Below are positions 4,986-21,127 of a stretch of 21,127 bases of DNA, piece after piece. Under the pieces are notes generated by a model. That model was given only the letters and a program-made list of their open reading frames with translations, did not search any database and was not told where the DNA came from. Position 1 is the stretch's first letter, and each line of letters opens with the position of its first letter. Source of the stretch: a virus; IMG/VR virus record IMGVR_UViG_3300031227_000515, positions 1 to 21,127 of that record. One strand, given 5' to 3'. The position numbers and the translations under genes were made by a program.

Positions 4986-5014
4986 TTGCAGGCTTCGCTT
5001 GCTTTCGCTATTTT
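4986..5014 (+). promoter_or_regulatory. Putative sigma70-like promoter for the replication/recombination operon
   Basis: TTGCAG (4986-4991), a 17-nt spacer and TATTTT (5009-5014) lie just after the polyvalent gene stop and 46 nt before the ATG at 5061. The layout matches the two promoter-like sites at 19809 and 20029, which also use TTGC in the -35 box and TATT(C/T)T in the -10 box with 43-48 nt to the ATG. The leader resembles the one before 20100 (GAGTCGA, then CCAGGAGAATC). No experimental support. Confidence 0.45.
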
Positions 5015-5060
5015 GCCTCGTATCTTGATCCCAGAGTCGAGCCCCAAAACCAGGAGAATC

Positions 5061-6658: not shown

Positions 6659-7522
6659 ATGGCTTTCACACTATCAAGTATCACACGCGAAGTGAAGTTC
6701 CGCGCACCAAGGATCGCGCTTCTCGGAGGTGAAAAGGTCGGCAAGACTTGCTTCGCCTGCGGGTGCCGATTCGAGAATGGAGAACTGGTGGAGACGGGGC
6801 TCAACAGTCCTATCGTCATACCGATCAGGGGCGAAGAAGGAACTGACGAACTGGATGTGCCAGTATTCCCTACCTGCGATTCTTTCCCTGATGTCATGGA
6901 GTGCATTCGCGTGCTCTATGAAGACGAGCACAAGTTCGGGATGATCGTCCTCGACTCCGTGTCGAGTCTTGCTCCTCTCATCAATGACGATGTATGCCAC
7001 GAGTTTGGCGTGGAGAACGTGCGCAAGGTTCCAGGCTTCCGCACTGGTGAAGCTGCGTGCGAGGTCCGTTGGAGACAAATCCTGGCTGGGTTGGACCTTC
7101 TCCGGAACACGAAGGGTATGGGGTGCGTCCTCATCGGTCACACTCGCCTGCGCAAAGCGGCGAACCAGGACGCCGACACCTTTGACGCCTATGATTTCGA
7201 TCTCGAAGTTCCGATCTCGGAAACCATCAAGCGTTGGGCCGATGCCATCCTGTTCGCAGCGATGAAGGTCGCTATCCGGACCGAGGGTAAGGACAGCGAT
7301 TTCTCGAAGGCCAAGCACAAGGGAATCGACGCGACAGGTGGTCAGCGTTACCTGTTCACGAGCCCGAGGCCAGCGAACCCGAGCGGTGGCAGAGGAGTCT
7401 ACGGGCACCTGCCCGCCGAGATGCCTCTTGATTGGGCTGGCTTCCAGGATGAGGTTTTGAAGGCTGGCACGAGAGTCAAGGAATTGGCCGCAGCAAAGGC
7501 GGCAACCGAATCGACCGAATAA
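6659..7522 (+). CDS. Sak4-type RecA-like phage recombination ATPase
   Basis: The 287-aa product starts with ATG directly after the upstream TAG, with AGGAG at 6645. Walker A is GGEKVGKT (residues 23-30), Walker B is IVLDS (96-100), and a sensor-like segment LIGHTRL lies at 158-164. This is the compact P-loop ATPase of the phage AAA_24/Sak4 group, RecA-like single-strand annealing or recombination proteins. The following DUF669 gene supports the call, since Sak4-like ATPases commonly sit beside a single-strand DNA-binding partner. It probably promotes pairing or annealing during phage recombination in the cytoplasm. The C-terminus is charged and Ala-rich (KELAAAKAATESTE). A RadA/RecA-like annotation would be an alternative name for the same fold. 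Confidence 0.85.
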   Translation: MAFTLSSITREVKFRAPRIALLGGEKVGKTCFACGCRFENGELVETGLNSPIVIPIRGEEGTDELDVPVFPTCDSFPDVMECIRVLYEDEHKFGMIVLDSVSSLAPLINDDVCHEFGVENVRKVPGFRTGEAACEVRWRQILAGLDLLRNTKGMGCVLIGHTRLRKAANQDADTFDAYDFDLEVPISETIKRWADAILFAAMKVAIRTEGKDSDFSKAKHKGIDATGGQRYLFTSPRPANPSGGRGVYGHLPAEMPLDWAGFQDEVLKAGTRVKELAAAKAATESTE

Positions 7523-7575
7523 GTGGTGGCACGTACTACCTACGAACAGAAGTGAGAAACCAGGAGACGACGACG

Positions 7576-8130
7576 ATGAACAACAACATTGCATCACTGT
7601 GGGGGATAGACCTGATCCCGCTGAATCAGATCCCCGAGCAAGAGGACCGAGACGGCCAATTCGAGCCGCTGCCGGTTGGCTGGTATGCCGTGACAATCGA
7701 GAAGTCAGAGGTCATGGAAACCAAGAGCGGCAACGGCAAGTATCTCAAGCTTGACATGGTTGTCATTGGCGACCCCTACGCCGGACAACACATCTTCACG
7801 AACATCACGCTTATCAATCCGAACGAGCAAGCAGAGCAGATCGGGATGCGCGAGCTTGGTGCCATCGGCAAGGCATGCGGTCTGCAAACTCTCTCAGGGA
7901 GCGACGAACTGCTTAACAAACAGCTTGACGTGCGCGTGAAGATCAAGAAGCGGGAAGGCTACCCGCCAGACAACGATGTCACGGCCTACAAGCCCCTCGG
8001 GCAAGGGACGGCAACGCAGAAGCCTGCTGCACCTCCTGCTGCCGCAGGGACGCCTCCTGTATTCACTCCACCTGGAGCCAGTGGAGTCGCGCCTCCGGCT
8101 GGTGGTGCGAAGAAGATGCCCTGGGAGTAG
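7576..8130 (+). CDS. DUF669 family, ssDNA-binding-like phage protein
   Basis: The ATG at 7576 has AGGAG at 7562-7566 (context ACCAGGAGACGACGACG) and is preferred to an in-frame GTG at 7552. The 184-aa product has the DUF669 core: PLPVGWYAVTIEKSEVMETK, SGNGKYLKLDMVV, and LDVRVKIKKREGYPPDNDV. A Pro/Ala/Gly-rich linker (from about residue 140) leads to the C-terminal tip KKMPWE. A flexible linker and a short acidic/aromatic tip recall the C-termini of single-strand binding proteins, which recruit partners. Its place directly after the Sak4-like ATPase fits a role as the ssDNA-binding partner. Family membership is good; the biochemical role is inferred. Confidence 0.82.
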   Translation: MNNNIASLWGIDLIPLNQIPEQEDRDGQFEPLPVGWYAVTIEKSEVMETKSGNGKYLKLDMVVIGDPYAGQHIFTNITLINPNEQAEQIGMRELGAIGKACGLQTLSGSDELLNKQLDVRVKIKKREGYPPDNDVTAYKPLGQGTATQKPAAPPAAAGTPPVFTPPGASGVAPPAGGAKKMPWE

Positions 8131-8173
8131 CAGTTACTCACCGAAGACGTTGATGAAGTAGGAGCAAAAGCAA

Positions 8174-8560
8174 ATGCAGAAGGATCTCGCAACACTAGCG
8201 AACGAACTGTTCGCGGCAAAACAGGCAGAGAAGTCAGCAAAGGCTGAACGAATCCAGGCTGAGAAAGCTATCGGCCTGCTCGTAGAAACTGCGGAGAAAG
8301 GCAGTAAGACGGTTGACGCTGGCAATGGCATCCGGATCACGGTGACACGGGGAATCACGTTCAAGGCCGACATGGACGCGATCCGGTCGCTGACCATTCC
8401 AGAGGAGGTAATGCCAATCACGATGGTGCCAGCCTCCTACAAGTTCGACCCGAAGAAGTACGAGAGCGTCAGGGAGAATCATCCCGATATCGCCGCGAAG
8501 CTGGCCAACTGCGTGACGGCGACTCCGAAGAAACTGGCAGTCACGATGAAAGTTGGGTAG
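8174..8560 (+). CDS. Phage protein, DUF7173-like, 128 aa
   Basis: ATG at 8174, with TAGGAG at 8159-8164. The N-terminal ~45 residues form a Lys/Glu/Ala-rich helix (LAAKQAEKSAKAERIQAEK-like, predicted coiled coil). A beta-rich part follows: GSKTVDAGNGIRITVTRGI, then YKFDPKKYE, ending TPKKLAVTMKVG. The order (coiled helix, short glycine-rich strand, P-x-K-x-AV ending) resembles small phage proteins found beside recombination genes, recalled as DUF7173; this was not searched. No catalytic residues are evident. Its position between the DUF669 protein and the PD-(D/E)XK nuclease suggests a recombination accessory role, but this is inference. Confidence 0.7.
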   Translation: MQKDLATLANELFAAKQAEKSAKAERIQAEKAIGLLVETAEKGSKTVDAGNGIRITVTRGITFKADMDAIRSLTIPEEVMPITMVPASYKFDPKKYESVRENHPDIAAKLANCVTATPKKLAVTMKVG

Positions 8561-8567
8561 AAAGGGA

Positions 8568-8602
8568 GAGCCCGCTGCAGGAGTCGAAACCGCAGCGGGC
8601 TC
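8568..8602 (+). terminator. Intergenic hairpin, 11-bp perfect stem
   Basis: GAGCCCGCTGC (8568-8578) is the exact reverse complement of GCAGCGGGCTC (8592-8602), with a 13-nt loop. There is no U-run after the stem, so a classical intrinsic terminator is unlikely. An mRNA-stabilising or attenuating stem between the recombination genes and the nuclease gene is equally possible. Confidence 0.5.
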
Positions 8603-8640
8603 TAATCGGAATCCACGTCTCAGCACAGGAGAAACCAGAC

Positions 8641-9660
8641 ATGGAAGACCTGAGTCCATATATACAGTCTGAAACAGAAACAGTCAAGCGGATTTACGCA
8701 TGGCACAAGAAAATCGGAGACTCCGAGGAAGAGCGTGGCTATCTTGGTGCCAGCAGCCTTGGGGAAGAGTGCGAGCGGGCACTGTGGTACAGTTTTCGAG
8801 GCTGTGTCAAACGCAATTTTATAGGTAGACTCTACCGTCTCTTCGAGACTGGCAATCTAGCAGAAGCTAGATTCGTGTCAGAGCTCAGGGGAATCGGATG
8901 CGAAGTCCACGAGTTTGACGAAGATGGCAAGCAATTTGCTATCACCGGGATTGGTGGACACTTCTCCGGGCACATGGATGGATGCGCTCTGGGGATCCCA
9001 GAAGCTCCACTGAGTTGGCATGTTGTCGAGTTCAAGACTCACTCTTCCAAGAACTTTGCGAAGCTCAAGAAAAACGGGGTCGAGACAGCCTTCCCGAAGC
9101 ACTTTGCTCAGATGATGGTCTACATGGGCGGCACTGCGATGCAGCGCGCCCTGTACCTCGCAGTGAACAAGGACACCGACGAACTCTACTCTGAGCGCAT
9201 CCGCTTCGACTCCCAGGTATACAAGCGGCTGATGACCAAAGCCAGAAGGATCATCGAGAGCATTGCCGCCCCTCCACGTCTCGCGACTCGCCAAGACTCG
9301 TTTGCATGCAAGTGGTGCGATGCAAAAGACCTTTGCTGGAGCACAGGTAAAGTCGCAGTCCCGATCCCGAAAGTCAACTGCCGAACGTGCTGCCACTCCA
9401 CACCGATAACGGCCATGGAAGAGAGAACGTGGGCCTGTGCAAAGCACGGAACGATTGATGGTGATATCACCGAAGCAGTGTGCGACGATCATCTTATCCT
9501 TCCATGCCTCGTCAATTTTGCCGAACCGACTGATGCCGGAGATGATTGGATCGAGTTCACCAACAACAATGGTGGCGAGAAGTGGAAGCATGGGAAAGGC
9601 TTCTGGCAGACAAGACAACTGATCTCGTCTATGGGACCGCTGGGCGATTTACCATTCTGA
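8641..9660 (+). CDS. PD-(D/E)XK (Cas4/RecB-like) phage nuclease
   Basis: ATG at 8641 after ACAGGAG at 8626-8632; 339 aa. The metal-binding core is visible: HMDG with D113, VVEFKTH with E130 and K132, and QMMVY (Q157 to Y161, the QxxxY motif). An upstream acidic helix (FETGNLAEARFV) may supply motif I. After the core there are Cys-rich segments: CKWCDAKDLCW near residue 223, then CRTCC and a C/H-rich region with CAKHG, ending LILPCLV. These look like a zinc-binding tail frequent in phage nucleases. It probably acts as an exonuclease resecting phage DNA ends for the ATPase and DUF669 pair. The fold assignment is strong; the exact polarity is unknown. Confidence 0.88.
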   Translation: MEDLSPYIQSETETVKRIYAWHKKIGDSEEERGYLGASSLGEECERALWYSFRGCVKRNFIGRLYRLFETGNLAEARFVSELRGIGCEVHEFDEDGKQFAITGIGGHFSGHMDGCALGIPEAPLSWHVVEFKTHSSKNFAKLKKNGVETAFPKHFAQMMVYMGGTAMQRALYLAVNKDTDELYSERIRFDSQVYKRLMTKARRIIESIAAPPRLATRQDSFACKWCDAKDLCWSTGKVAVPIPKVNCRTCCHSTPITAMEERTWACAKHGTIDGDITEAVCDDHLILPCLVNFAEPTDAGDDWIEFTNNNGGEKWKHGKGFWQTRQLISSMGPLGDLPF

Positions 9661-9671
9661 AAGGGATAGCC

Positions 9672-11381
9672 ATGGTCAAGAAGACGCCAGAAGATGAAGT
9701 GCGAGCAGAGCTGGCCGGTTACCAGCCTCTCCCAATCGAATCCAGTGCCATGAAGCCACGCCTGTATCAGGTTGAAGCTCACGAGGCTCTGAACCTGCAT
9801 CTACAGACCAAGGACACGAACCCTTGCGTAGTCATCCCAACTGGTGGCGGCAAGTCAGTAATGATGGCCTGGGACATCCAGGCATGGAAGCGTGACTATC
9901 CTGCATTCCGATGCTGCATCCTGGCTCACCGCAAGGAACTGGTCAAGCAAAACTCCGACGAACTACTCGGGCTGTGGCCGGCGGGTGACATAGGTGTGTA
10001 TGCCGCTGGCTTGAAGCGGCGGGACACCGACAACTCCATTATCTACGCCATGATCGACTCGATCCACAACAAAGCTGGCCACTTCCCTGCGTTCGACTGT
10101 CTCATAATCGATGAGGCCCACCGAATCCCCATGCGTGGCGAAGGCAAATACCGCAAATTCATCGCGGATTGCAAAACCTACAACCCCAACCTGATCGTGG
10201 TTGGATACACCGCGACCCCATTCCGGATGGGTGGTAGTTCGATCTGCCACCGCGATCATATCTTGAACGAAATCTGTTATGAGGCGAATGTTGGCGACTT
10301 GATAGCGGATGACTACCTGTGCAACCTTCGCTCGAAGGTCGGAGATGCACCGGATCTCAGCGAGGTCAACTGCAACCACGGCGGCGACTACATCATCAAC
10401 AGTCTAGCCAAGGCAGTTGACACGCCAGATGTAGTCCAAAAAGCTGTGCGTTCAGCAATGGGTATCATCCAGGCAGAACAGCGCACCAGCGTTATCGTGT
10501 TCTGTGTGGACGTAAAGCATTGCCATGACGTATCAATGGAACTACGCAAGTATGGAGCTGAGGCACCAATTGTCACTGGTAAGACTCCCCAGACCGAGCG
10601 TGACCGGATAGCCGAGTGGTTCAAGTCTGGCCGATACCGCTTCCTGCTAAATTGCAACGTCTACACGGAAGGATTTAATGCCAAACGGGTGGACTGTATC
10701 GTAGACCTTGCCCCTACCCTGTCCGCGGGACGATTTGTCCAGAAGGTCGGGCGCGGGCTCAGGCAGCATCCTTCAAAATCTGACTGCTTGTACCTTGATT
10801 ATGGACACAATATCGAGACGCATGGCCCTATCGACTGCATCGAGGATGAGGATGTGCGGTTGGCCGAGTGCCAGGGATGCGGAGACACGTTCTCCCATGC
10901 CGTCCGGACGTGTCCTCATTGCGGATGGGAGATTCCCAAGCAGGAGATCGAGCGCGCCGAGGCCGAGGTCAGAGAGCGCAGGATGCACGAGGAGGAAGCG
11001 GCACAGCGCGCGATCCTTGGCTCGCAACCGGAAGAGCTTGAAGTATCTGCCGTCACAGTCCATCGGCACACCAAACCAGGGAATCCTGATAGCATGCGAG
11101 TACAGTACCGCTGTGGCCTGTCCACTGTAAGGGAATGGATCTGTCTTGACCATACAGGCTATGCCAGAGGTAAGGCGTTTGACTGGTGGAAGACACGCTT
11201 CGGTGCAGCGGAAGCAAGCCGCATGACGGTTGACGACGCTATTGGAGACCTGTACACTGCTCAGAGGATCAAGGACGTTACGCACACCATTACCGTTGTC
11301 CGGCGTGGCAAACACCAGGAGATCGTCGCGTATGACCTTGATCCATCGTGTCGAAGACAGCAACAGGAGCCGAGTCGATGA
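9672..11381 (+). CDS. Superfamily 2 DNA helicase (DEAH box) with C-terminal zinc finger
   Basis: ATG at 9672 with AAAGGGA 7 nt upstream; the frame is open back to 9546, but that stretch overlaps the nuclease gene, so the ATG is chosen. The product is 569 aa. Motifs in order: Q-like LYQVEAHEAL (~31-40), Walker A PTGGGKS (56-62), Walker B DEAH (147-150), motif III-like TATP (180-183), and motif VI QKVGRGLRQHP in the second RecA domain. A four-cysteine finger (CQGCG, CPHCG) follows near residue 400. The tail has coiled-coil-like charged helices and a W-rich domain. It would unwind or remodel DNA during phage replication and recombination. The stop overlaps the next ATG (ATGA). Confidence 0.9.
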   Translation: MVKKTPEDEVRAELAGYQPLPIESSAMKPRLYQVEAHEALNLHLQTKDTNPCVVIPTGGGKSVMMAWDIQAWKRDYPAFRCCILAHRKELVKQNSDELLGLWPAGDIGVYAAGLKRRDTDNSIIYAMIDSIHNKAGHFPAFDCLIIDEAHRIPMRGEGKYRKFIADCKTYNPNLIVVGYTATPFRMGGSSICHRDHILNEICYEANVGDLIADDYLCNLRSKVGDAPDLSEVNCNHGGDYIINSLAKAVDTPDVVQKAVRSAMGIIQAEQRTSVIVFCVDVKHCHDVSMELRKYGAEAPIVTGKTPQTERDRIAEWFKSGRYRFLLNCNVYTEGFNAKRVDCIVDLAPTLSAGRFVQKVGRGLRQHPSKSDCLYLDYGHNIETHGPIDCIEDEDVRLAECQGCGDTFSHAVRTCPHCGWEIPKQEIERAEAEVRERRMHEEEAAQRAILGSQPEELEVSAVTVHRHTKPGNPDSMRVQYRCGLSTVREWICLDHTGYARGKAFDWWKTRFGAAEASRMTVDDAIGDLYTAQRIKDVTHTITVVRRGKHQEIVAYDLDPSCRRQQQEPSR

Positions 11382-11728: not shown

Positions 11729-11750
11729 GAGCCGCAAAGGACGGTGTGGA

Positions 11751-12059: not shown

Positions 12060-12075
12060 CAGGAGACGACAGAAA

Positions 12076-12564
12076 ATGAACGATCACGCTGAACTACCGT
12101 CAGAGTGCGATGAACTCTGTAGATATCGAACGTGTTTCCATCCGGGAGAGAACAAAGGAACATTCTCGGCCGGACGCGGCTACACGTCGTACCACGCGAA
12201 GCCAATCCTCGTGTGCGTGTACCGGATGAATCACGGATGTCCATTGATCGAGATCAACGGCGAGTTGACACGGCCACTGCCGGATGTGAAACGGTTGCTA
12301 GCGGACATGGAGACCGATGTGGACGGGGCGAAATGCACTCAGAGGGTGAGACGTTTGCTGCGCAAACTGCACAGATCCCTGGCAAAGGTTTGGAACAGGC
12401 TGGAGCACACGACCTCGGAGTTGGTGCAGAGGAACGAGGCAATAGACGGCATGATCGACGCGGCAAGAACAACCCAACGGCTGTTTGGACTGTATGACAA
12501 TCACTGTCTAATGAGGGCGACAGCCGAGCTTGAGAAACACGCGCAAAAGGACGGTGCCAAATGA
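12076..12564 (+). CDS. Cys-rich N-terminus plus coiled-coil protein, 162 aa, unknown
   Basis: ATG at 12076 with ACAGGAGACGACAGAAA upstream. The N-terminal ~60 residues carry spaced Cys and His (ECDELCRYRTCFHPG, VCVYRMNHGC), suggesting a metal-binding fold. From residue ~70 the sequence is helical and charged (KRLLADMETD, then VRRLLRKLHRSLAKVWNRL), likely coiled coil. The gene ends in HAQKDGAK, where the last codons overlap the GCAAAGGACGGTG motif and the next ATG. No family is recognised. It is flanked on both sides by other small metal-binding-type genes of the same operon. Confidence 0.65.
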   Translation: MNDHAELPSECDELCRYRTCFHPGENKGTFSAGRGYTSYHAKPILVCVYRMNHGCPLIEINGELTRPLPDVKRLLADMETDVDGAKCTQRVRRLLRKLHRSLAKVWNRLEHTTSELVQRNEAIDGMIDAARTTQRLFGLYDNHCLMRATAELEKHAQKDGAK

Positions 12565-12851
12565 TGATGAGCGACCACTACTTCGACTCCAAAACTGTTA
12601 CCACCCGCAAGCCGCACCACTGCCACGGGTGCAACCGGGACCTTCCACCGGGTAGTAAAATGCTGGTATGTGAGGGGATACAGGACGGCGAACACTACAG
12701 GGGGTATTGGTGCGAGACATGCTTACAGATCGAGCCGCAGTGGACCGGGAACGAAGACGAGATCCCGGAGGGAGGATTCCGAGACGAACTCCCAGAAGAG
12801 TGGGAAGAGTGCCGCAAAAGAGTGGAAGACGCAAAGGACGGTGACAAATGA
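12561..12851 (+). CDS. Small zinc-ribbon protein, 96 aa
   Basis: The start lies in ATGATGATG at 12561 (M-M-M). The 12561 ATG forms an ATGA overlap with the previous stop and is preceded by GCAAAGGACGGTG. Two CxxC-type pairs (HHCHGCNRDLPPG, YWCETC) frame a short beta region, followed by an acidic helix ending RVEDAKDGDK. The plan (CxxC, PPGxK, CxxC, then an acidic helix) matches the 15387 protein, which is probably a paralogue. Such small zinc-ribbon proteins are common in tailed phages and are mostly of unknown function. The last codons again carry the AAGGACGGTG motif before the next ATG. Confidence 0.72.
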   Translation: MMMSDHYFDSKTVTTRKPHHCHGCNRDLPPGSKMLVCEGIQDGEHYRGYWCETCLQIEPQWTGNEDEIPEGGFRDELPEEWEECRKRVEDAKDGDK

Positions 12852-13120
12852 GCAACGAACAGAAACCAGTAGCCTGCCCGTTCTGCGGGAGCAAGTGGCT
12901 CAAGCGCAACGAAGACGGATGGTACCAGCACGTAAACAACGGCTGTTATCTCGACACGCCAACCCGTGGAATCTTGGCACCTTCTGGGGTCGTGGAATAC
13001 AACGCCGGGTGCACCGAAATCACTGCCTTGACTGCAATTCGCAAGCGCTCGCTGCGGCGGTGGAAAAACGGCAAACGGATCGAGAAACTTGACAAAGAAG
13101 AAGAAAGTACCACCCCATGA
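12848..13120 (+). CDS. Lar-like CPFC zinc protein, 90 aa
   Basis: ATG at 12848 overlaps the previous stop (ATGA) and follows GCAAAGGACGGTG. The N-terminus MSNEQKPVACPFCGSKW parallels the 11378 protein (MSDQQKPTETPVPCPFC). Both continue with a Gly-Trp-x-H segment and an N-x-G-C or DCP cysteine. The C-terminal half is different and basic (SLRRWKNGKRIEKLD). It therefore keeps the N-terminal module of the 11378 protein without its GHHDTVEGIF part. A restriction-alleviation-like name would be only family-level. The stop overlaps the primase start. Confidence 0.7.
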   Translation: MSNEQKPVACPFCGSKWLKRNEDGWYQHVNNGCYLDTPTRGILAPSGVVEYNAGCTEITALTAIRKRSLRRWKNGKRIEKLDKEEESTTP

Positions 13121-15390
13121 ACATTCTGGACCATGCGAAGAAGTACGCCGAGCGAGGCTGGCCAGTTATCCCCCTCAGACCCAAGGAGAAAGTGCCGTTG
13201 ACGGCGCACGGGCTCAAGGACGCCAGCGTCGAGCTTGGAGTGCTCGAAGGCTGGTGGGCAAAGAACCCAGATGCCAATATTGGGATCGTTACTGGCGAGG
13301 TCGCTGGGATTTGGGTGCTTGACATCGACGGCGAGATCGGATCTGTGTCGCTGCTCAAGACAGAGCTCGAACTGGGGCCATTGCCAGAAACTCTCGAGCA
13401 GAAGACAGGCGGCAATGGCCGGCAACTGTTTTTTGCATGGCCGAAAGGGCGCGAGATCAGAAACAAGCAGGCGCTACGAACCAAGATCGATGTGCGCGGA
13501 AATGGCGGCTATGTGGTCGCTCCACCGTCCATCCATCCCAACGGTCAGGCATACGACTGGCCATATGGCGACAAGACCAAGATCAAGGAAGCTCCGGAGG
13601 CATGGATCGCCGCGCTTGAGACTGTGGCCAAGCCCAAGGTAGCGGAAGCCTTGTGGGAGCCCCCGCAGGCACGCAAGCCCGTGGTCACGTCTCCTGGGAT
13701 GAAGGCTGGCATTCAGGTTGTGGAGCGAGCAAGGCTATACCTACAGCAGTGCGAAGCAGCCGTGCAAGGCAAGGGTGGACACGACAAGCTCCTGTGGGCT
13801 GCGCGAGCGATGGTGGTTGGGTTCGAGCTGGACGATGCGACAGCTTTGAGCCTGCTCTGGTCTGACTACAACCCCAAGTGCCTTCCCCCGTGGGACAAGA
13901 GCAACAAGAAGGACGTGCGCGAGTTCGATCACAAAGTGGATCAGGCTAGAACCTCGACATCAACCAAGCAATCTGGCTGGGCTCTGGATGAATTTGGGCT
14001 CCGTGACAGTGCCGAGGCAATGGCAAATATCACGGCAGGACGCGAGTCAGCTCGGAATCTGCTCGGGCTGGAGATCAAGCAGACTCCCCGCGAGAAGGCG
14101 GAAAACATTGACCAGACCGGCCTGACAGGGGAACGCAAACCGTTCCCGGTTGACTTGTTCCCTGAACCGATTGCTAACTACTGTTCCCAGGTCGCCCAGG
14201 CTCACGTAGTCGATACCTCGTTCTGCGCTCTACCAATCCTTTGCGCGGCTGGCACGGCAATGGGGAATGCATTCCGGCTGAAGCTTAAAAAAGGATTTAA
14301 TGTCAACCCCGTTCTCTGGGTTGGGCTGGTAGCACCAAGCGGGACCAATAAATCTGGTCCACTGAACGAGATTATCGAACCATTGCGAGGACGGGTGCCG
14401 ATTGACGAGAACGACGTGTCAACCTGCAACCCGCAAGGACGCATGATGATATCAGATGCAACCACTGAAGCGGTCATTGTCCGGATGTACGAGAGCCCAC
14501 GGGGACTCATGGTGTTCCGCGACGAACTGGCCGGATGGTGCAAAGGCTTCAATGCCTACAAGAAGTCCGGCGGCGACGAACAGGCATGGCTAGAGTTCTG
14601 GGGAGCAAAAGAGTATGTGCTCGATCGCAAAACCAACAACGAGCAGATCCACATACCTGCGGCCGCATGCTCGATCCTTGGTGGAATCCAGCCTTCGGTT
14701 CTGGTCGAATGTTTTGACCCTGGCAGGTTCGCGTCCGGTCTGGTCCCCCGCATCCTGATAGCCTGCCCCCCAGCCATGGACATGTTCTGGAGCGAGGCAG
14801 AAGTGGATGCAGTCGATGAGAAGACTTGGTATGATGCTATCATGTGGCTCAGGACCAGACCGTTCGAGTCGTTCAACCTGGACTCGCAACGGTACATGCC
14901 GCATGTGCTCAATCTGACCAGGGACGCGAAAGAGATGTACGTTGGGTTCTTCAATGTCATTTCACTCGAAATCAGCGGTAGCAGCGATGAGGCACTGAAA
15001 GCCATGGCCAGCAAGTCGCGTATCATGGCAGGACGATTGGCATTGATCCATCACGGGCTCAAGATTGCATGCGCCAAGGAATCGCATGCGAACATACCAG
15101 TCGATGTTGATAGCATGGATGCTGGAATTGAGTGGGCTCGCTGGTGTCTGGATGAGCAGACGCGGGTCTACGGGTTCGCAGGCCACGAGCACCGCAAAGA
15201 ACAGGCCGAGTATTTAGCTGGGTTGATCCAGACAAAGGGAAAACGCAACTCTGTCACCATACGACAAACCCAGAGACTCAATGCCCGTAGGTACAAAAAT
15301 AACGACATCGCGAAGGCCGCGCTCGACCAGTTGGTCGAAATGGGATACGCAACATGGAACGACGAAGGGGAAAAGGTGACATTAGTATGA
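13117..15390 (+). CDS. Bifunctional primase-polymerase fused to DUF3987 ATPase
   Basis: 757 aa; ATG at 13117 overlaps the previous TGA. No good Shine-Dalgarno is seen, so translation is probably coupled. Residues 1-150 are an archaeo-eukaryotic primase (PrimPol) fold: WVLDID (D69, D71), the motif II region TGGNGRQLFF, and DVRGNGGYVVAPPS. The usual motif II His (GxH) is replaced by Gln 103. A linker with a PriCT-like NPKCLPPW element (~250-260) follows. From ~340 there is a DUF3987 domain (FPVDLFPEPIANYC, AMGNAF) with P-loop-like APSGTNKS (406-413). It probably primes and helps drive phage DNA replication; ATPase and helicase roles are inferred from the family. Its decayed relative lies at 5061-5464. 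Confidence 0.88.
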   Translation: MNILDHAKKYAERGWPVIPLRPKEKVPLTAHGLKDASVELGVLEGWWAKNPDANIGIVTGEVAGIWVLDIDGEIGSVSLLKTELELGPLPETLEQKTGGNGRQLFFAWPKGREIRNKQALRTKIDVRGNGGYVVAPPSIHPNGQAYDWPYGDKTKIKEAPEAWIAALETVAKPKVAEALWEPPQARKPVVTSPGMKAGIQVVERARLYLQQCEAAVQGKGGHDKLLWAARAMVVGFELDDATALSLLWSDYNPKCLPPWDKSNKKDVREFDHKVDQARTSTSTKQSGWALDEFGLRDSAEAMANITAGRESARNLLGLEIKQTPREKAENIDQTGLTGERKPFPVDLFPEPIANYCSQVAQAHVVDTSFCALPILCAAGTAMGNAFRLKLKKGFNVNPVLWVGLVAPSGTNKSGPLNEIIEPLRGRVPIDENDVSTCNPQGRMMISDATTEAVIVRMYESPRGLMVFRDELAGWCKGFNAYKKSGGDEQAWLEFWGAKEYVLDRKTNNEQIHIPAAACSILGGIQPSVLVECFDPGRFASGLVPRILIACPPAMDMFWSEAEVDAVDEKTWYDAIMWLRTRPFESFNLDSQRYMPHVLNLTRDAKEMYVGFFNVISLEISGSSDEALKAMASKSRIMAGRLALIHHGLKIACAKESHANIPVDVDSMDAGIEWARWCLDEQTRVYGFAGHEHRKEQAEYLAGLIQTKGKRNSVTIRQTQRLNARRYKNNDIAKAALDQLVEMGYATWNDEGEKVTLV

Positions 15391-15686
15391 AGACGGAAAC
15401 GGAAGACGCATTGGTTCCTAAATACGTCCGGACCACGAACCCCACCGCGCATAAGTCTCACGAGTGCTGCGAATGTCTGGGGACCATCAACGTAGGAGAA
15501 AAATACGAATATGTAACAGGTCTGTGGGGAACCAAGCATGACTGGTTCCGGACGTGTCTGGACTGCACGCTCGTGAGAGCACGGTTTTCCAGATACATCA
15601 ATTACGAGGAGTTGCCATTCGGGAGTCTGCGCGAGAGAATGCGAAAAGAGAAGGTCACTGAGTCTGAACTGTTGGCAATGCCGTAA
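15387..15686 (+). CDS. Small zinc-ribbon phage protein, 99 aa
   Basis: ATG at 15387 overlaps the primase stop (ATGA); no strong ribosome-binding site, so translation is probably coupled. The core has CCECLGTINVGEKYEYVTG and FRTCLDC, a CxxC pair on either side of a Gly-Trp beta region, then a charged C-terminus (RERMRKEK). It has the plan of the 12561 protein and may be its paralogue. Small zinc-ribbon proteins of this kind are frequent in phage early regions, and their targets are unknown. It lies between the primase and a RusA-like resolvase. Confidence 0.7.
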   Translation: MKTETEDALVPKYVRTTNPTAHKSHECCECLGTINVGEKYEYVTGLWGTKHDWFRTCLDCTLVRARFSRYINYEELPFGSLRERMRKEKVTESELLAMP

Positions 15687-15701
15687 CCAGGGGACAAAAA
15701 A

Positions 15702-15824
15702 ATGACACGCAAAGAAAACCCCGAGCAACTGACGGACAGAATTATCAGGGCAGAGCGATTGGTTGACAACCTGTACAAAGAGCTTCAAAAGGAACAAAAG
15801 GCGAAGCGAGAGAAAACCGAGTGA
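15702..15824 (+). CDS. Small charged protein, 40 aa, unknown
   Basis: ATG at 15702 after CCAGGGGACAAAAAA, a slightly changed form of the genome's usual CCAGGAGA site. The stop TGA (15822-15824) overlaps the next GTG start (GTGA). The product is a single charged helix (EQLTDRIIRAERLVDNLYKE, then QKEQKAKREK) with coiled-coil character. No family is recognised. The ribosome-binding site and overlap make it likely to be translated, but it is too short for homology. Confidence 0.55.
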   Translation: MTRKENPEQLTDRIIRAERLVDNLYKELQKEQKAKREKTE

Positions 15825-16213
15825 ACGAAACCGTCGCAATCCTGCTGCCGCTTCCTCCGGCATGCCTGAGTCCGAACTGTCCGCCTGGCTCAAGGGGTGG
15901 ACGAATGCGCAAGGCCGTTGCCGCAAAACGATACCGGAAACTGGCAAGGATTGCGGCGCGAGAGTCGGGAATCGAGTCAGGACCATGGGAACAGGCCACC
16001 ATTCAGGCTGCATTCTACCACAAGCAGAAACGTCGGCGGGATGACGTGAATGCGTTGGCCATGCTCAAGCCTGCATATGATGGGATCGTGGACGCGGAGC
16101 TACTGGCCGACGACGACCACGAGCACCTGACTACGCTCCCGGCCACATTCGGGATCGATAAGCTGTATCCAAGAGTCGAGTTGACGATTGAGAGAATAGG
16201 AGAAAGACAATGA
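15821..16213 (+). CDS. rusA: RusA-like Holliday-junction endonuclease
   Basis: 130 aa from a GTG that overlaps the previous stop. An ATG start further in would remove the first beta strand, so the GTG is chosen. The N-terminal part LPLPPACLSPN and the basic helix KAVAAKRYRK match the RusA plan. RRRDDVNALAMLKPAYDGIV, then AELLADDDHEHL supplies the acidic core (D-D-V-N and D-D-D). RusA-type enzymes cleave branched DNA as dimers; here it would resolve recombination intermediates produced by the upstream recombination genes. The symbol marks family resemblance, not orthology. Confidence 0.75.
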   Translation: MNETVAILLPLPPACLSPNCPPGSRGGRMRKAVAAKRYRKLARIAARESGIESGPWEQATIQAAFYHKQKRRRDDVNALAMLKPAYDGIVDAELLADDDHEHLTTLPATFGIDKLYPRVELTIERIGERQ

Positions 16214-16428: not shown

Positions 16429-17112
16429 CTAGTATCTCTCGATCACCTTTTTGATCGTCCGTGGTCGCCACGCTTTCCCCCTGCGAAACTCTGGCATACA
16501 ATTATCCATGATCCGAGCAATCATGTATGGTTTATTCCCCTCTTTGTATAGTTCCATGATACGGGCAACTGCTGGTGCCTCGCTACTGTTGGGCACCAAC
16601 CGATCAGGGTTTGTGGGGTCTATCATGGTCCCAAACGGCGGAATGGAACTCATCTTTTTCCCAGCGCGCTGATGCTGGTGCATGGCGTCCTTGGTCCGTT
16701 GACTGATTTGCTTGCGTTCGAGCTCTGCAACTGCATCCATGATCTGGCGGACGAAAAGCACAGTCGGGTCGTTCTCGTCCCCCTCTATGTCTCCGGACAC
16801 CGCCACAATGGACGCACCCGCTTGCTTCACTTGCCGCCTAGTAAGCTCGGCGAGCATAACGTCACGGGCTATTCGGTCGCGCTTGTAGACCAGCAGAATG
16901 CTCCCCTTGCCTAGCATCGAAATCGCCTTGGCAAGCCCCGGACGGTTTGCGTCTTTGCCGCTCTTGGCCTTGTCCTCGGTAACGGCGACGATATACCAGC
17001 CCTGTTCAGCTGCATACCTACCGCATTGTGCGGCCTGGGTCTCGCAGCTCTCGCTCTCGTCCGAGTTTCGGCGAGGACTGAATCTTGTGTAGATTACGCA
17101 TTGGTCCTTCAT
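16429..17112 (-). CDS. Serine recombinase (resolvase/integrase family), 227 aa
   Basis: ATG at 17112 on the minus strand with AAGGAG 7 nt upstream; it overlaps the stop of the 49-aa gene (ATGA). The catalytic domain is clear: YTRFSPRR with R10 and S12, GKDANRPGL, and VYKRDRIARD with D79, R80 and R83, followed by the long E-helix region (ELERKQISQRTKDAM). The C-terminus carries the start of a recombinase DNA-binding region (AVARIMELYKEGNKPYMIA, WRPRTIKKVIERY) but stops there. It lacks the zinc ribbon and coiled coil of large integrases, which are usually about 450-550 aa. It is either a naturally short resolvase-type enzyme or a truncated integrase. It would catalyse site-specific recombination; no att site was identified in the window. 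Confidence 0.88.
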   Translation of the reverse strand: MKDQCVIYTRFSPRRNSDESESCETQAAQCGRYAAEQGWYIVAVTEDKAKSGKDANRPGLAKAISMLGKGSILLVYKRDRIARDVMLAELTRRQVKQAGASIVAVSGDIEGDENDPTVLFVRQIMDAVAELERKQISQRTKDAMHQHQRAGKKMSSIPPFGTMIDPTNPDRLVPNSSEAPAVARIMELYKEGNKPYMIARIMDNCMPEFRRGKAWRPRTIKKVIERY

Positions 17113-17258
17113 TTTGTCTCCTTCGCGTCTCTGAGTATCTGGCGGATCTCTCGCAGGTCACTGCGGATCTTGGCGTAACTGTGCGTCCCGTGCGCCAGTG
17201 CGGACGTGCAGCGTGTGATAGCACGGGATATGACATTAGACTGTTCTGTACGCTTCAT
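17109..17258 (-). CDS. Small basic protein, 49 aa, unknown
   Basis: ATG at 17258 (minus) has GGAGG at 17265-17269; the open frame upstream to 17330 lacks such a site, so the short form is chosen. Its TGA overlaps the recombinase ATG, implying coupled translation. The product (MKRTEQSNVISRAITRCTSA at the start; a KIRSDLREIRQILRDAK helix at the end) is basic and helical. Small proteins directly upstream of phage recombinases are sometimes regulators or excision factors; nothing here proves that. Confidence 0.6.
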   Translation of the reverse strand: MKRTEQSNVISRAITRCTSALAHGTHSYAKIRSDLREIRQILRDAKETK

Positions 17259-18348: not shown

Positions 18349-18684
18349 CTAGTTGCCGGAGGAGGAGAGGATCACGCCGTGGCATTCGTGCCAGTATCCC
18401 TCGCCTGTTTGCGCTTGACACAGCATTTCACTAATTGTGGCGTCGGAGACCAGCTGAGCCGCACATCCCATTTGTGAGTAGGATTGGCTGCCGCCTATAT
18501 AGGGATACATGCCTCGGCTTGTACCCGTCGAGTAGATTACATAGGTATAACCAGAAAGTGGCTTTGACGCTTTTCGCACACGCCAAACGGCAGTGCCGTA
18601 GTAGCTTGTATCGTAGCGGCGCGCTACAACTGAATCGGCGTAGAATCTCAGGTTCTGGTAGTTCTGGACGAGTGATTTTTTCAT
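18349..18684 (-). CDS. Unknown protein, 111 aa
   Basis: ATG at 18684 (minus) after GCAGGAGAAAGACG, the site shared by this operon. The product starts MKKSLVQNYQNLRFYADSV and has YYGTAVWRVRK, YVIYSTGTSRGMYPYIGG and a Ser/Gln-rich middle (SQSYSQMG), ending GVILSSSGN. It is rich in Tyr, Ser and Gly with few charges in the second half. No clear domain, signal peptide or membrane helix. Its place between the 18763 gene and the Ala-rich gene suggests the same accessory set. Function unknown. Confidence 0.65.
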   Translation of the reverse strand: MKKSLVQNYQNLRFYADSVVARRYDTSYYGTAVWRVRKASKPLSGYTYVIYSTGTSRGMYPYIGGSQSYSQMGCAAQLVSDATISEMLCQAQTGEGYWHECHGVILSSSGN

Positions 18685-18762
18685 CGTCTTTCTCCTGCTT
18701 TCTCGACTCGGTTTCGGTCTGTCTTGTCAATGCGGGGCTCTCAGGTCGCGGAGTTCAGACCC

Positions 18763-18990
18763 CTATTCGTCGTACTTCATCCATGCGCCGAGGATAGTTT
18801 TGGCGATGGATACACACAATTTGTGGGGGACGCCGTGACCATGACAGCACCATGAAGTCTCAACAATCCCAAGGGCGACACCTTCGGCGACATCTTGACC
18901 ACACTCGGCAACGTAGACTTCGAATGTCTCGAATCCGCTATCGCGGAAACCATTATTGAAGGCTTGTGTTAGTTCCTGCCGAATTGTCAT
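18763..18990 (-). CDS. Unknown small protein, 75 aa, first gene of the minus operon
   Basis: The ATG at 18990 (minus), preceded by ACCAGGAGAAAGACG, gives 75 aa; the longer frame to 19131 lacks a site and runs through the -10/-35 region, so it is rejected. The product has MTIRQELTQAFNNGFRDSG, FEVYVAECGQDVAEGVALG and a Cys/His cluster ETSWCCHGHGVPHKLC, ending AWMKYDE. No family is recognised. It is the first gene after the minus promoter and so likely the most strongly expressed of this operon. Confidence 0.65.
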   Translation of the reverse strand: MTIRQELTQAFNNGFRDSGFETFEVYVAECGQDVAEGVALGIVETSWCCHGHGVPHKLCVSIAKTILGAWMKYDE

Positions 18991-19039
18991 CGTCTTTCTC
19001 CTGGTTTGCTGCGACTCCATCGACTCAGTACTAAGGGTC

Positions 19040-19067
19040 ACAATACATGGTGCCTTGCGCTTGTCAA
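19040..19067 (-). promoter_or_regulatory. Minus-strand sigma70-like promoter
   Basis: On the minus strand, TTGACA (19062-19067) is followed after 16 nt by TATTGT (19040-19045), with the predicted start near 19033 and the first ATG at 18990. The match to consensus is strong. The phased TGTACA array lies about 47 bp upstream of the -35 box, suggesting control by a bound protein. Confidence 0.7.
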
Positions 19068-19113
19068 GGGGTGGTAGTAATCTTTTTTTGGGGCTGGGAG
19101 CAAGATCCAGCGG

Positions 19114-19152
19114 TGTACACTCAATGTACACATACTGTACATTCTATGTACA
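19114..19152. promoter_or_regulatory. Four TGTACA palindromes exactly 11 bp apart
   Basis: TGTACA occurs at 19114, 19125, 19136 and 19147, starts exactly 11 bp apart, about one helical turn, so all four face the same side of the DNA. The motif is its own reverse complement. It is probably a cooperative protein-binding site upstream of the minus promoter; the protein is not identified. Confidence 0.8.
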
Positions 19153-19154
19153 TG

Positions 19155-19328
19155 TGTGACAGTGTAGCAAATTGTGACACTTTCACAGGTGCATGACAAC
19201 GTGTGATAGCATGACAGCGGAACGAAAGTGTGACAGCGCGTGACAAACCGCTGCAAGTGGCCAAACACCAGTGTCTTATAGCAGATTGTCACACATTGTC
19301 ATACTTTGTTACAGTGTCAAAATTGTCA
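19155..19328. repeat. Opposed arrays of TGTGACA / TGTCA boxes
   Basis: Direct boxes (T/C)(G/A)TGACA have TGACA starts at 19157, 19175, 19194, 19212, 19231 and 19241, plus a TGATA variant at 19204. Inverted boxes TGTCA lie at 19287, 19297, 19315 and 19324, with a TGTTA variant at 19307. Spacings are 8-10 or 18-19 bp. A boxless stretch (19246-19286) separates the two. This resembles iteron or partition-site layouts, but the protein is unknown. Confidence 0.7.
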
Positions 19329-19439
19329 TGCTTAAAACACGTAGGATGGCTTATATTTGCTTCAAAAGAGAGGAGGCTAAGTAGAGTATGTATATGTATG
19401 ACAATGTATATTTAGTACTACTACGTTTTAAGCATGACA
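19324..19439. repeat. 19-21 bp inverted repeat enclosing an AT-rich core
   Basis: TGTCATGCTTAAAACACGTAG (written 19324-19344) is repeated inverted at 19421-19439, differing by one 2-bp gap. The last TGTCA box begins the left arm. The 76-bp core is AT-rich. The whole could form a cruciform or mark a replication or recombination site. Confidence 0.75.
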
Positions 19440-19456
19440 CGGCAAAAACATATTAG
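19388..19456 (+). CDS. Possible micro-ORF inside the inverted repeat, 22 aa
   Basis: ATG at 19388 with GAGGAGG at 19371-19377. It reads MYMYDNVYLVLLRFKHDTAK plus two residues, then TAG. It runs across the right arm of the inverted repeat. It has a good ribosome-binding site but no homology; a leader peptide is possible. Confidence 0.25.
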   Translation: MYMYDNVYLVLLRFKHDTAKTY

Positions 19457-19730
19457 TCTGTTACTAGCTAACAAATGCAGGAACGGCAAGAAGGGAGAGG
19501 GGAAGGGGTTAGTCCAGCCTGAGTTGGCCGATACCCTGCCTGAAATACCTGAATCCGGCCCACGACAGCAGGCGCAAGGGTGCCCTTGCGCCACACGCTC
19601 TACGTGCCTGAGCTGGCCTGTATGGTGCGTGGTGCAAGTAGGCTGTAGTGCTTGTCGTGTGTGCCTGTCAGTGCTCCAATGACCCTGATCTAGTGTCATT
19701 ATTCGAATGATCCCGATCTAGGATCTTTAC
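19440..19730. other. Non-coding stretch with a perfect palindrome and two operator-like dyads
   Basis: No convincing gene is seen; a plus ORF from 19434 lacks a ribosome-binding site. At 19571-19592 GGCGCAAGGG and CCCTTGCGCC form a perfect 10-bp inverted repeat around TG, without a U-run. At 19678-19700 (AATGAC...GTCATT) and 19709-19725 (GATCC...GGATC) two dyads share the core GATCTA. They may be operators for the plus genes at 19885 onward. Confidence 0.5.
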
Positions 19731-19732
19731 CA

Positions 19733-19745
19733 CCCCCCCCCCCCC
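19733..19745. repeat. Homopolymer tract, C13
   Basis: Thirteen consecutive C in the control region, between the dyads and the plus promoter. Length may vary or be miscalled by sequencing. Confidence 0.85.
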
Positions 19746-19808
19746 GATCTGTGTTGGGACTCCTATGTACCCTGCCTCCCTCCCGTGTGTGGTATTTGAG
19801 TAATCGGG

Positions 19809-19836
19809 TTGCAAAAATATATATTTCCGATATTCT
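19809..19836 (+). promoter_or_regulatory. Plus-strand promoter of the 19885 gene
   Basis: TTGCAA (19809-19814), 16-nt AT-rich spacer, TATTCT (19831-19836), 48 nt before the ATG at 19885. It aligns with the 20029 promoter through GGTTGC(A/C)AAAATATATA and TATT(C/T)TGG. An alternative reading is TTGAGT at 19796 with TATATT at 19820. Confidence 0.65.
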
Positions 19837-19884
19837 GGCCGTTGGTGGAAGCGTCTTGAATCCCAACCAACTAGGAGCCAACCA

Positions 19885-20019
19885 ATGTCCAAGACAGCAC
19901 GCGGCAAGCGGGATGGTACTGGTCCTTATCGTGGAAGTTCTCAGTCGAAGAGTTTTTCAGTTGGCAAGCGTGGCGAGAAGAGTTGCCCGAAGTCTGTGAA
20001 GAAGTCTAAGGTGAAGTAG
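19885..20019 (+). CDS. Small basic phage protein, 44 aa
   Basis: ATG at 19885 with TAGGAG at 19872-19877. It reads MSKTARGKRDGTGPYRGSSQ, continues SKSFSVGKRGEKSCPKS and ends KKSKVK. Small phage proteins with an RDGTGPYRGS-like segment and Lys-rich tail are common and of unknown role. It is strongly basic and could contact nucleic acid. It is the first gene of the right-hand plus module and has its own promoter; the next gene has a separate promoter at 20029. Confidence 0.7.
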   Translation: MSKTARGKRDGTGPYRGSSQSKSFSVGKRGEKSCPKSVKKSKVK

Positions 20020-20028
20020 CAATTCCGG

Positions 20029-20056
20029 TTGCCAAAATATATAAATAGTGTATTTT
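20029..20056 (+). promoter_or_regulatory. Plus-strand promoter, near-copy of the 19809 site
   Basis: TTGCCA (20029-20034), 16-nt spacer including AAATATATA, and TATTTT (20051-20056), 43 nt before the ATG at 20100. It aligns with the 19809 site over about 34 bp. Its leader (GAGTCGA at 20073, then ACCAGGAGAATC) matches that before 5061. Confidence 0.65.
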
Positions 20057-20099
20057 GGTTATTCAGCGTTCCGAGTCGAATCGAACCAGGAGAATCCCG

Positions 20100-20441
20100 A
20101 TGAAGTCTGCACCGCCCGTGCCGAAGCCGGCCTGCTCTGCTCTGCCATGGGGAGTGGGAGCGCCTCCTAAAGTTGATCTCCCCCCCCCCCACCCCCGACG
20201 AGGAGAACTAACAAAAAGGCTATTTCCAGGAGAGCCAGCGATATTGAACCAAACCATCCGTGGCTTGATGCTGAAAGCATATTCAAGTGGTTATCAAGCA
20301 GGGCACCACGACACCGTTGAGGGAATATTCACCGACGATCCGAGAGGAACCGACGCGGAATACTACCACGGAGATGCAGTAAACGAGGTGATTGCAGACG
20401 AGACCCGTCCTCCCACCCCCGACGCGGAGGATGAGGAATGA
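20100..20441 (+). CDS. Pro-rich N-terminus with GHHDTVEGIF module; frame depends on a C11 tract
   Basis: ATG at 20100 after ACCAGGAGAATCCCG. As written, the frame runs 113 aa: a Pro-rich start (MKSAPPVPKPACSALPWG), PPPHPRRGELTK across the C11 tract (20180-20190), then YQAGHHDTVEGIFTDD, EYYHGDAVNEVI and an acidic tail RPPTPDAEDEE. The second part closely matches the C-terminal half of the 11378 protein. If the tract lost one C, the first part would end as PPTPDEEN with TAA at 20209, resembling the real tail. The module could then start separately at TTG 20244, which has AGGAG at 20228-20232. Either one fused gene or two genes is possible. The stop overlaps the next ATG. Confidence 0.6.
   Translation: MKSAPPVPKPACSALPWGVGAPPKVDLPPPHPRRGELTKRLFPGEPAILNQTIRGLMLKAYSSGYQAGHHDTVEGIFTDDPRGTDAEYYHGDAVNEVIADETRPPTPDAEDEE
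20180..20190 (+). repeat. C11 homopolymer inside the 20100 coding frame
   Basis: Eleven C, followed by A and five more C. A one-base change would shift the reading frame downstream, so it may act as a slippage switch or be a sequencing error. CCCACCCCCGACG occurs here (20188-20200) and again at 20412-20424. Confidence 0.8.
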
Positions 20442-21127
20442 ACACAAACAAACTACAGAACACATTGGACCTGCACGGCAAATGGCTGCGGTGCGAAGAT
20501 GGTGGCCAGCGTGCCAACCTGAGCGGAAGCGACCTGCGCGGTAGCAACCTGAGCGGCAGCAACCTGAGCGACAGCGACCTGCGCGGTAGCAACCTGAGCG
20601 GCAGCAACCTGCGCGGCAGCAACCTGAGCGGAAGCGACCTGAGCGGCAGCTACCTGCGCGGCAGCGACCTGAGCGGCAGCAACCTGAGCGGAAGCAACCT
20701 GAGCGGAAGCAACCTGCGCGGTAGCAACCTGAGCGGCAGCAACCTGAGCGGAAGCAACCTGCGCGACAGCGACCTGCGCGGCAGCAACCTGCGCGGCAGC
20801 AACCTGCGCGACAGCGACCTGCGCGGCAGCAACCTGCGCGACAGCGACCTGCGCGGTAGCAACCTGAGCGACAGCGACCTGAGCGGAAGCAACCTGCGCG
20901 GAACAGCCATTGACCACACCATCCGGTCTCTGATGCGCCAATTTGTTCGAGACTGCCCTTGTCTCCGCACTGGCGGGCGGGTCGTCTATCGCACGGCAAC
21001 CAGCCAACACATTGGCTCGTGTGTCTACGAACCTGGACAGACCTATGTAGCACCATTCCTCTCGTGGTCGGCAGAAACCGCTTGCCACCCTGGCATATAC
21101 GCGGCGTCTCGTGAGTGGATGAGAGAC
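20438..21127 (+). CDS. Pentapeptide-repeat protein, 3' partial
   Basis: ATG at 20438 overlaps the previous TGA (ATGA); the frame stays open to the right edge (230 codons). The N-terminal 25 residues (LQNTLDLHGKWLRCEDGG) lead into 26 consecutive pentapeptides S-(N/D)-L-(S/R)-(G/D), predicted to form a right-handed quadrilateral beta-helix. A different domain follows (RSLMRQFVRDCPCLRTGG, then VYRTATSQHIG, CVYEPGQTYVAP and ACHPGIYAAS), resembling small C-terminal domains on some phage pentapeptide proteins. Pentapeptide proteins can mimic DNA or bind gyrase, but no such role is shown here. The end is cut by the window. Confidence 0.82.
   Translation, partial: MNTNKLQNTLDLHGKWLRCEDGGQRANLSGSDLRGSNLSGSNLSDSDLRGSNLSGSNLRGSNLSGSDLSGSYLRGSDLSGSNLSGSNLSGSNLRGSNLSGSNLSGSNLRDSDLRGSNLRGSNLRDSDLRGSNLRDSDLRGSNLSDSDLSGSNLRGTAIDHTIRSLMRQFVRDCPCLRTGGRVVYRTATSQHIGSCVYEPGQTYVAPFLSWSAETACHPGIYAASREWMRD
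20513..20902 (+). repeat. Twenty-six 15-bp repeats encoding S(N/D)L(S/R)(G/D)
   Basis: 26 uninterrupted in-frame 15-bp units. Variation sits mainly at AAC/GAC, AGC/CGC and GGN/GAC codons. Each unit ending in D (GAC) is followed by an S-D-L unit (five of five cases), pointing to copying of larger blocks. Confidence 0.95.

What the first reader, a model, noticed from the sequence alone, without database searches (positions are those of the whole stretch)
19155..19328. Opposed iteron-like TGTGACA and TGTCA arrays
Seven direct boxes face five inverted ones across a boxless stretch, with 8-10 or 18-19 bp steps. Together with the TGTACA array this builds a ~215-bp repeat block. The layout resembles replication iterons or heptad-bound partition/regulator sites (as for omega-type ribbon-helix-helix proteins), but no such protein was found in the window.
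Basis: partly seen in the sequence, partly recalled or inferred. Interest (0 to 1): 0.72.

Follow-up and report, generated by a model that had tools for sequence, protein, structure and literature searches.

The report
Likely phage DNA replication start site
The facing rows of short repeated DNA words are real and sit beside the most easily melted DNA of this phage fragment, at a spot where its relatives keep a similar layout, so this is most likely where the phage starts copying its genome: a useful but not unusual kind of element.

Summary
In detail: seven TGTGACA-like boxes (19155-19245) face five TGTCACA-like boxes (19287-19330) across 41 boxless bp, with steps of 8-10 or 18-19 bp, well above chance. 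The window is a fragment of an uncultivated tailed-phage genome. The boxes lie in an 894-bp divergent non-coding gap, about 3.8 kb past a Prim-Pol/MCM-like helicase gene with a C-terminal winged helix. Beside them (19339-19424) is an AT-rich tract holding the least stable 60 bp of the contig, enclosed by 15-bp perfect inverted arms that each carry a box. Relatives keep such a gap upstream of the terminase genes: the least stable 60 bp lie in it in 11 of 13 contigs, and opposed repeat arrays beat all 100 shuffles in 7 of 13 relatives' gaps versus 0 of 33 control gaps. The words usually differ; one relative (G009) has the same box and steps. Best explanation: a replication origin, iterons plus unwinding element, probably recognised by the Prim-Pol/helicase. 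Partition by ribbon-helix-helix proteins is not supported (no ParA, no RHH above cut-off in 15 contigs). An operator role, alone or in addition, is the main rival. New member of a known kind; function untested.

The parts
19155..19245 (+). seven direct TGTGACA-like boxes (19155, 19173, 19192, 19202, 19210, 19229, 19239)
19246..19286 (.). boxless spacer between the opposed arrays, 41 bp
19287..19330 (-). five inverted TGTCACA-like boxes (19287, 19297, 19307, 19315, 19324)
19324..19338 (+). left arm of a 15-bp perfect inverted repeat; holds box TGTCATG
   Evidence: (I6), 98: longest perfect arm of the gap, 15 bp against at most 11 in 20 shuffles
19339..19424 (.). AT-rich tract (34% G+C), proposed DNA unwinding element; the least stable 60 bp of the contig start at 19377
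19397..19403 (+). further direct box TATGACA inside the AT-rich tract
19425..19439 (-). right arm of the inverted repeat; holds box CATGACA (19433-19439)
19114..19152 (.). four palindromic TGTACA boxes at exact 11-bp steps; operator or auxiliary iterons
   Evidence: not found as such an array in the other 15 gaps
19040..19067 (-). promoter-like TTGACA-16-TATTGT for the leftward genes
   Evidence: 10 of 12; consensus match only
18991..19884 (.). divergent non-coding gap holding the whole element, 894 bp
   Evidence: codon-usage gene calls
19729..19745 (+). ACCAC + C-run motif, shared with relatives' gaps; possible cos site, not part of the arrays
13117..15390 (+). Prim-Pol + DUF3987 (MCM-like helicase) protein with C-terminal winged helix; candidate initiator
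6659..11381 (+). rest of the replication module: Sak4-like AAA_24 (6659-7522), DUF669 (7552-8130), DUF7173 (8174-8560), Cas4-type exonuclease (8641-9660), helicase (9546-11381)

Best explanation
A phage origin of DNA replication. The opposed boxes are iterons for the phage's own initiator; the AT-rich tract at 19339-19424 is the unwinding element, enclosed by a 15-bp inverted repeat whose arms each carry a box. Proposed working: the Prim-Pol/MCM-like helicase protein (13117-15390) binds the boxes through its C-terminal winged helix, assembles as two helicase rings on the two facing arrays, melts the adjacent AT-rich DNA and primes both strands, giving two forks. Shown by computation: boxes, spacing, orientation, AT-rich minimum, gap position, similar gaps in relatives, domain content of the protein. 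Inferred: that replication starts here, that this protein is the initiator, that two rings load head to head.
For: Replication module on the same contig. Box clustering and orientation above chance. Least stable 60 bp of the contig fall in this gap in 11 of 13 contigs, the window included; two further contigs agree (G020, G021). Opposed-array score beats all 100 shuffles in 8 of 14 gaps (the window and 7 of 13 relatives' gaps upstream of terL), at most 3 shuffles reach it in 11 of 14; controls 0 of 33 and 1 of 33. The words differ between relatives (L004 TGTATAAC, L090 TTTCAAGG, L101 GATGCGGACT, L018 CTTAACGCC), as expected of an initiator-specific origin. Relative G009 (L105 4291-4599) has the window's own box with the same step grammar (inverted 4361, 4379, 4389, 4397, 4407; direct 4497, 4506, 4534, 4553) around an AT tract. 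TGACA is the strongest pentamer that is not low-complexity across the 15 other gaps. The comparable region of Streptococcus phage pST, whose kin Sfi21 has a reported 302-bp non-coding origin (PMC6356513, passages), shows TTACCG boxes on both sides of an AT tract. Residues 349-757 of the Prim-Pol protein model as an MCM-like ATPase with a C-terminal winged helix; P4 alpha, SaPI Rep and SCCmec Cch2 recognise origin repeats with a winged-helix or C-terminal domain (passages of PMC4234260 and PMC7581432).
Against: No replication, binding or transcription data. Three of 13 relatives' gaps fail the opposed-array test (L120 12/100, L104 27/100, L112 37/100); only in the window, L004, L090, L101 and L018 is the top-scoring word the one seen by eye, in the other gaps it is a different word. 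In G012 and G029 the least stable 60 bp lie elsewhere; with 30-bp windows they lie elsewhere for the window too (20034). Array polarity relative to the AT tract differs between window and G009. The gap is also a divergent promoter region with 7 promoter-like sites against 1.2 expected, so AT-richness and boxes could be regulatory. The gap is 3.8 kb from the primase gene, not directly behind it as in SaPI, SCCmec or S. thermophilus phages. No terminase gene is in the window itself (contig ends at 21127). Nothing was shown to bind the boxes.
Confidence: 0.66

Rival explanations
1. An operator region: the boxes are sites of a phage regulator that controls the divergent leftward and rightward promoters, without origin function.
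For: Divergent gap; promoter-like sites 7 against 1.2 expected, some built from the boxes themselves; TGTACA array upstream of the leftward promoter-like site; operator words also turn over between related phages (general knowledge); a small HTH_17 protein is encoded at 5592-5789.
Against: Twelve to fourteen boxes plus an AT tract that is the least stable 60 bp of most contigs is more than operators need; no CI/Cro-type repressor gene recognised next to the gap in the window.
Confidence: 0.2
2. A packaging site: boxes bound by the small terminase subunit next to cos or pac (like lambda cosB).
For: In 13 relatives the gap lies upstream of terL, often directly upstream of a gene that looks like terS by eye; a conserved ACCAC + C-run motif lies near.
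Against: The boxes are some 400 bp from the C-run in the window, and in L096, L104 and L102 the C-run lies on the other side of the AT tract, so the two are separate; the AT-rich minimum and the Streptococcus phage comparison, where the region lies behind the primase, are not explained.
Confidence: 0.08
3. A partition site (omega/RHH or ParB/ParR type centromere) of a phage-plasmid.
For: Arrays of short boxes in both orientations; a TGTACA array of the same 11-bp step stands before a ParA-like gene in contig L008 (gene named by eye).
Against: ParA-type ATPase 0 of 15 contigs, RHH_1 over cut-off 0 of 15; no plasmid maintenance gene recognised in the window.
Confidence: 0.03

Closest known systems
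Origin of Streptococcus thermophilus Sfi21-type phages (302-bp non-coding element)
   Same: non-coding, AT tract with short boxes on both sides, phage with a helicase/prim-pol module; reported as replication origin (PMC6356513 passages)
   Different: lies directly behind the primase genes; different boxes; here the gap is 3.8 kb away, past a leftward operon, on the terminase side in relatives
SaPI and SCCmec origins (Rep / Cch2 self-loading helicases)
   Same: clusters of short iterons read by the C-terminal domain of an initiator helicase (PMC7581432 passages)
   Different: origin directly behind the helicase gene; initiators there are D5-like or DUF927 types; here Prim-Pol is fused to a DUF3987 helicase
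Satellite phage P4 ori with the alpha protein
   Same: primase-helicase with winged helix that binds repeats at the origin (PMC4234260 passage)
   Different: Toprim primase (same passage); P4 repeats were not compared here
pRN1 origin (ORF904 Prim-Pol/SF3/winged-helix protein)
   Same: same domain order; best Foldseek match is the pRN1 primase; 21-nt stem with long loop downstream, like the 15-bp arms and 86-nt loop here
   Different: pRN1 has no iterons; inverted arms above shuffle level are found in only 6 of 16 gaps here

Membership tests
iteron-type replication origin | cluster of short repeated boxes above chance in non-coding DNA | tested here: met
iteron-type replication origin | adjacent AT-rich unwinding element | tested here: met
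   least stable 60 bp of the contig at 19377; with 30-bp windows 20034 is lower
iteron-type replication origin | replication initiator encoded by the same element | tested here: inconclusive
   Prim-Pol/DUF3987 protein with winged helix present; binding not tested
iteron-type replication origin | supports autonomous replication / replication starts there | not testable with these tools
   needs experiment
Sfi21-type phage origin | non-coding repeats with AT tract directly downstream of the primase gene | tested here: not met
   gap is 3.8 kb downstream of 15390 with other genes between; layout alike
SaPI/SCCmec-type origin | iterons directly downstream of the initiator helicase gene | tested here: not met
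omega/RHH partition site | RHH protein and ParA-type ATPase encoded | tested here: not met
   PF01402 over cut-off 0 of 15, PF13614 0 of 15 contigs; most records are fragments
omega/RHH partition site | contiguous 7-bp heptads (recalled) | tested here: not met
   steps 8-10 and 18-19
lambda-type cosB | terminase small-subunit sites at a fixed place beside the cleavage site | tested here: inconclusive
   C-run motif on either side of the AT tract in different relatives; cleavage site unknown
DnaA-dependent origin | DnaA boxes in the region | tested here: not met
   TTWTNCACA: one match in the window, at 5629, none in the gap

The most novel reading that the evidence does not exclude
A widespread, so far undescribed class of phage origins in which two opposed iteron arrays beside an unwinding tract load two Prim-Pol/MCM-like helicase rings head to head, with the iteron word turning over from phage to phage while position, step and melting tract stay; the phages' winged-helix domains would then form a natural code of protein versus origin word.
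Probability: 0.25. Interest if true: 0.62.

Novelty: new member of a known kind. Interest (0 to 1): 0.42.

Why it matters
Origins of uncultivated phages are seldom located. Here the place can be named in a whole group of phages with the same replication module by three simple marks (divergent gap on the terminase side, least stable DNA, opposed boxes). If right, the set gives matched pairs of initiator and origin word for a Prim-Pol/MCM-like helicase, and makes the question of how such a protein finds and opens its origin directly testable.

Tried and rejected
Rejected: known RNA element (Rfam 0 hits in 18500-21127); DnaA-box origin; terminator (0 found); coding repeats (no gene called across 18991-19884); partition site.

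Led nowhere: search for relatives of the adjacent small protein 18349-18684 (3 candidate stretches, none confirmed); DNA similarity in phages (the listed matches are all in the pentapeptide-repeat gene); tblastn of the Prim-Pol in phages and plasmids gave only partial matches under 60% identity. The array of L102 (reverse strand) seen looks coding. A universal stem-loop is not supported: arms above the shuffle maximum in 6 of 16 gaps. GC skew was not used as evidence, because gene direction changes at the same place. P4 literature: listing only, the detail comes from a passage of PMC4234260. Searches for print on this particular origin type: (listings read; no paper on this phage group seen in them). 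VIA-align rows say little about the primase half.

Corrections and selections: the opposed-array counts allowed same-sign arrays; one search repeats the test with that fixed and is the one quoted. L117's second gap (16586-17235) was in the test set and among the controls; control L007 and the two gaps under 400 bp (L019, L028) were dropped. L018 has no terL on its contig and is reported apart (0/100). L105 (G009) was looked at because its melting minimum stood out, not by the terminase rule. L092/L093 and L004/L038 are duplicates and counted once. Test gaps are mostly longer than control gaps.

Full report
What is there. Seven direct TGTGACA-like heptads (19155-19245) face five inverted ones (19287-19330) across 41 boxless bp; steps are 18, 19, 10, 8, 19, 10 and 10, 10, 8, 9. 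Ten exact TGACA/TGTCA in 176 bp compare with a mean of 1.9 and maximum of 6 in 2000 shuffles; if any pentamer may win, 9 of 2000 shuffles reach ten. The one-mismatch box is not enriched over the whole window (65 against 66 expected), so the signal is local. Four TGTACA at exact 11-bp steps precede the array.

Two more direct boxes lie at 19397 and 19433. A 15-bp perfect inverted repeat (19324-19338/19425-19439) encloses 86 bp of AT-rich DNA; each arm carries a box. The least stable 60 bp of the 21-kb contig start at 19377, mostly inside that loop; with 30-bp windows a site at 20034 is slightly less stable.

Surroundings. The window is a virus record of 21127 bases with no further sequence. Rightward genes 6659-16213 form a replication and recombination module: Sak4-like ATPase, DUF669, DUF7173, Cas4-type exonuclease, helicase, Prim-Pol/DUF3987 and a RusA-like resolvase. 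Leftward genes run from 18990 down to a serine recombinase at 16429-17112. Codon-usage gene calls leave 18991-19884 without a gene, between leftward and rightward genes.

Relatives. An alignment of the helicase brought 80 IMG/VR loci (120 of 156 stretches confirmed, 80 kept). A Prim-Pol relative was found in 20 of 20 and 14 of 16 of the contigs then asked. Where the terminase large subunit is on the contig, a large non-coding gap lies upstream of it. I took 13 such gaps plus the window's. The opposed-array score (best heptad with one mismatch whose two orientations are segregated) beats all 100 shuffles in the window, L004, L090, L091, L093, L109, L096 and L102 (8 of 14), is reached once in L101, three times in L114 and L117, and fails in L120 (12), L104 (27) and L112 (37). 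Of 33 other gaps of 400 bp or more from the same set of contigs none beats all shuffles and one is reached once. Only in the window, L004, L090 and L101 (and L018, tested apart, 0 of 100) is the winning word the one I see by eye; the other gaps support clustering of opposed words more than one particular box.

Melting tract. In 11 of 13 contigs (window and L018's contig included) the least stable 60 bp lie in this gap; G012 and G029 are the exceptions. G020 and G021 agree as well. In L004 the minimum is an AT element just before the terminase genes, with the box array a close second.

Words. They mostly differ: TGTATAAC in L004, TTTCAAGG in L090, GATGCGGACT in L101, CTTAACGCC in L018. One relative, G009 (Prim-Pol 41% identical), has the window's box: inverted TGTCA at 4291, 4301, then an AT tract, then 4361, 4379, 4389, 4397, 4407 and direct TGACA at 4497, 4506, 4534, 4553, 4595 of L105, with steps of 8-10 and 18 in the inverted part. 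Its arrays point the other way relative to the AT tract. Across the 15 other gaps TGACA ranks fourth among pentamers, behind ATATA, CTCTC and AAAAA (Stouffer z 7.6); z is over 3 in 4 of those 15 and in the window, and negative in L120, L101, L096 and L114.

How it probably works. Layout, melting tract and replication module point to an origin. The Prim-Pol protein is the best candidate initiator: its model (15-sequence alignment, mean pLDDT 79) ends in helix, strand, helix, helix, strand, strand at residues 664-756, a winged helix; residues 349-687 match MCM helicases (Z about 16), and Foldseek's first match is the pRN1 primase. In passages read, P4 alpha binds origin repeats with a winged helix and pRN1 ORF904 has one too (PMC4234260), and SaPI Rep and Cch2 bind iterons by their C-terminal domain, possibly as two hexamers (PMC7581432). 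Two facing arrays would suit two rings and two forks; that is inference.

A yardstick. Streptococcus phage pST carries a helicase and prim-pol module. Behind its primase genes lie TTACCG boxes on both sides of an AT tract; the same test gives 0 of 100. The Sfi21 element of this phage kind is reported as a 302-bp non-coding origin (passages of PMC6356513; the 1998 paper itself was not read).

Rivals. Operators of the divergent promoters cannot be excluded: seven promoter-like sites against 1.2 expected, some made of the boxes; origin and operator may coincide. Terminase binding is less likely, since the ACCAC + C-run motif (present by pattern in 8 of the 13 relatives' gaps and in the window) lies on one side of the AT tract in some relatives and on the other in L096, L104 and L102. 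Partition is not supported.

Verdict. Observation confirmed; replication-iteron reading supported, partition reading not. Likely a phage replication origin, a new member of a known kind, with function untested.

Noticed in passing
window 4986-5279 and 5282-5464: Remains of a second DUF3987 primase-helicase gene: 4986-5279 is 48% identical over 50 aa to residues 343-392 of the intact protein; 5282-5464 resembles residues about 640-690 by eye.
   Followed up: partly
window 19729-19745; L090 1435; L109 5619 (-); L092 2789 (-); L096 7528; L104 2615; L120 2659: Conserved motif ATCTTTACCAC(A)CCCCCC / ATCTGAACCAC.CCCCCC near the terminase genes; a candidate cos cleavage site.
   Followed up: partly
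window 19804-19838 and 20024-20058; L004 11043-11075: Two copies of TTGCMAAAATATATA...TATTYT before small rightward genes, and a similar AT-rich element just before the terminase genes in L004: perhaps a shared late promoter.
   Followed up: no
L005, L006, L007, L008, L009, L010: TGTACA x4 at exact 11-bp steps in six other viral contigs, before a ParA-like gene in L008 and an ERF-like gene in L007 (named by eye): a recurrent operator layout.
   Followed up: partly
window 16429-17112 (-): Serine recombinase with only the first part of the Recombinase domain; relatives in 20 loci, in L004 also just past the Prim-Pol gene and on the opposite strand.
   Followed up: no
window 6201-6457: 24-bp tandem repeat (10 + 14 spacing of CCTGCC) inside the coding region 5786-6658.
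   Followed up: no
L101 16189-16368: 49-bp perfect inverted repeat with 82-nt loop made of 10-bp GATGCGGACT units, next to an AT tract: a strong hairpin origin candidate.
   Followed up: partly
window 20438-21127: Pentapeptide-repeat protein that gives many low-identity phage matches.
   Followed up: no
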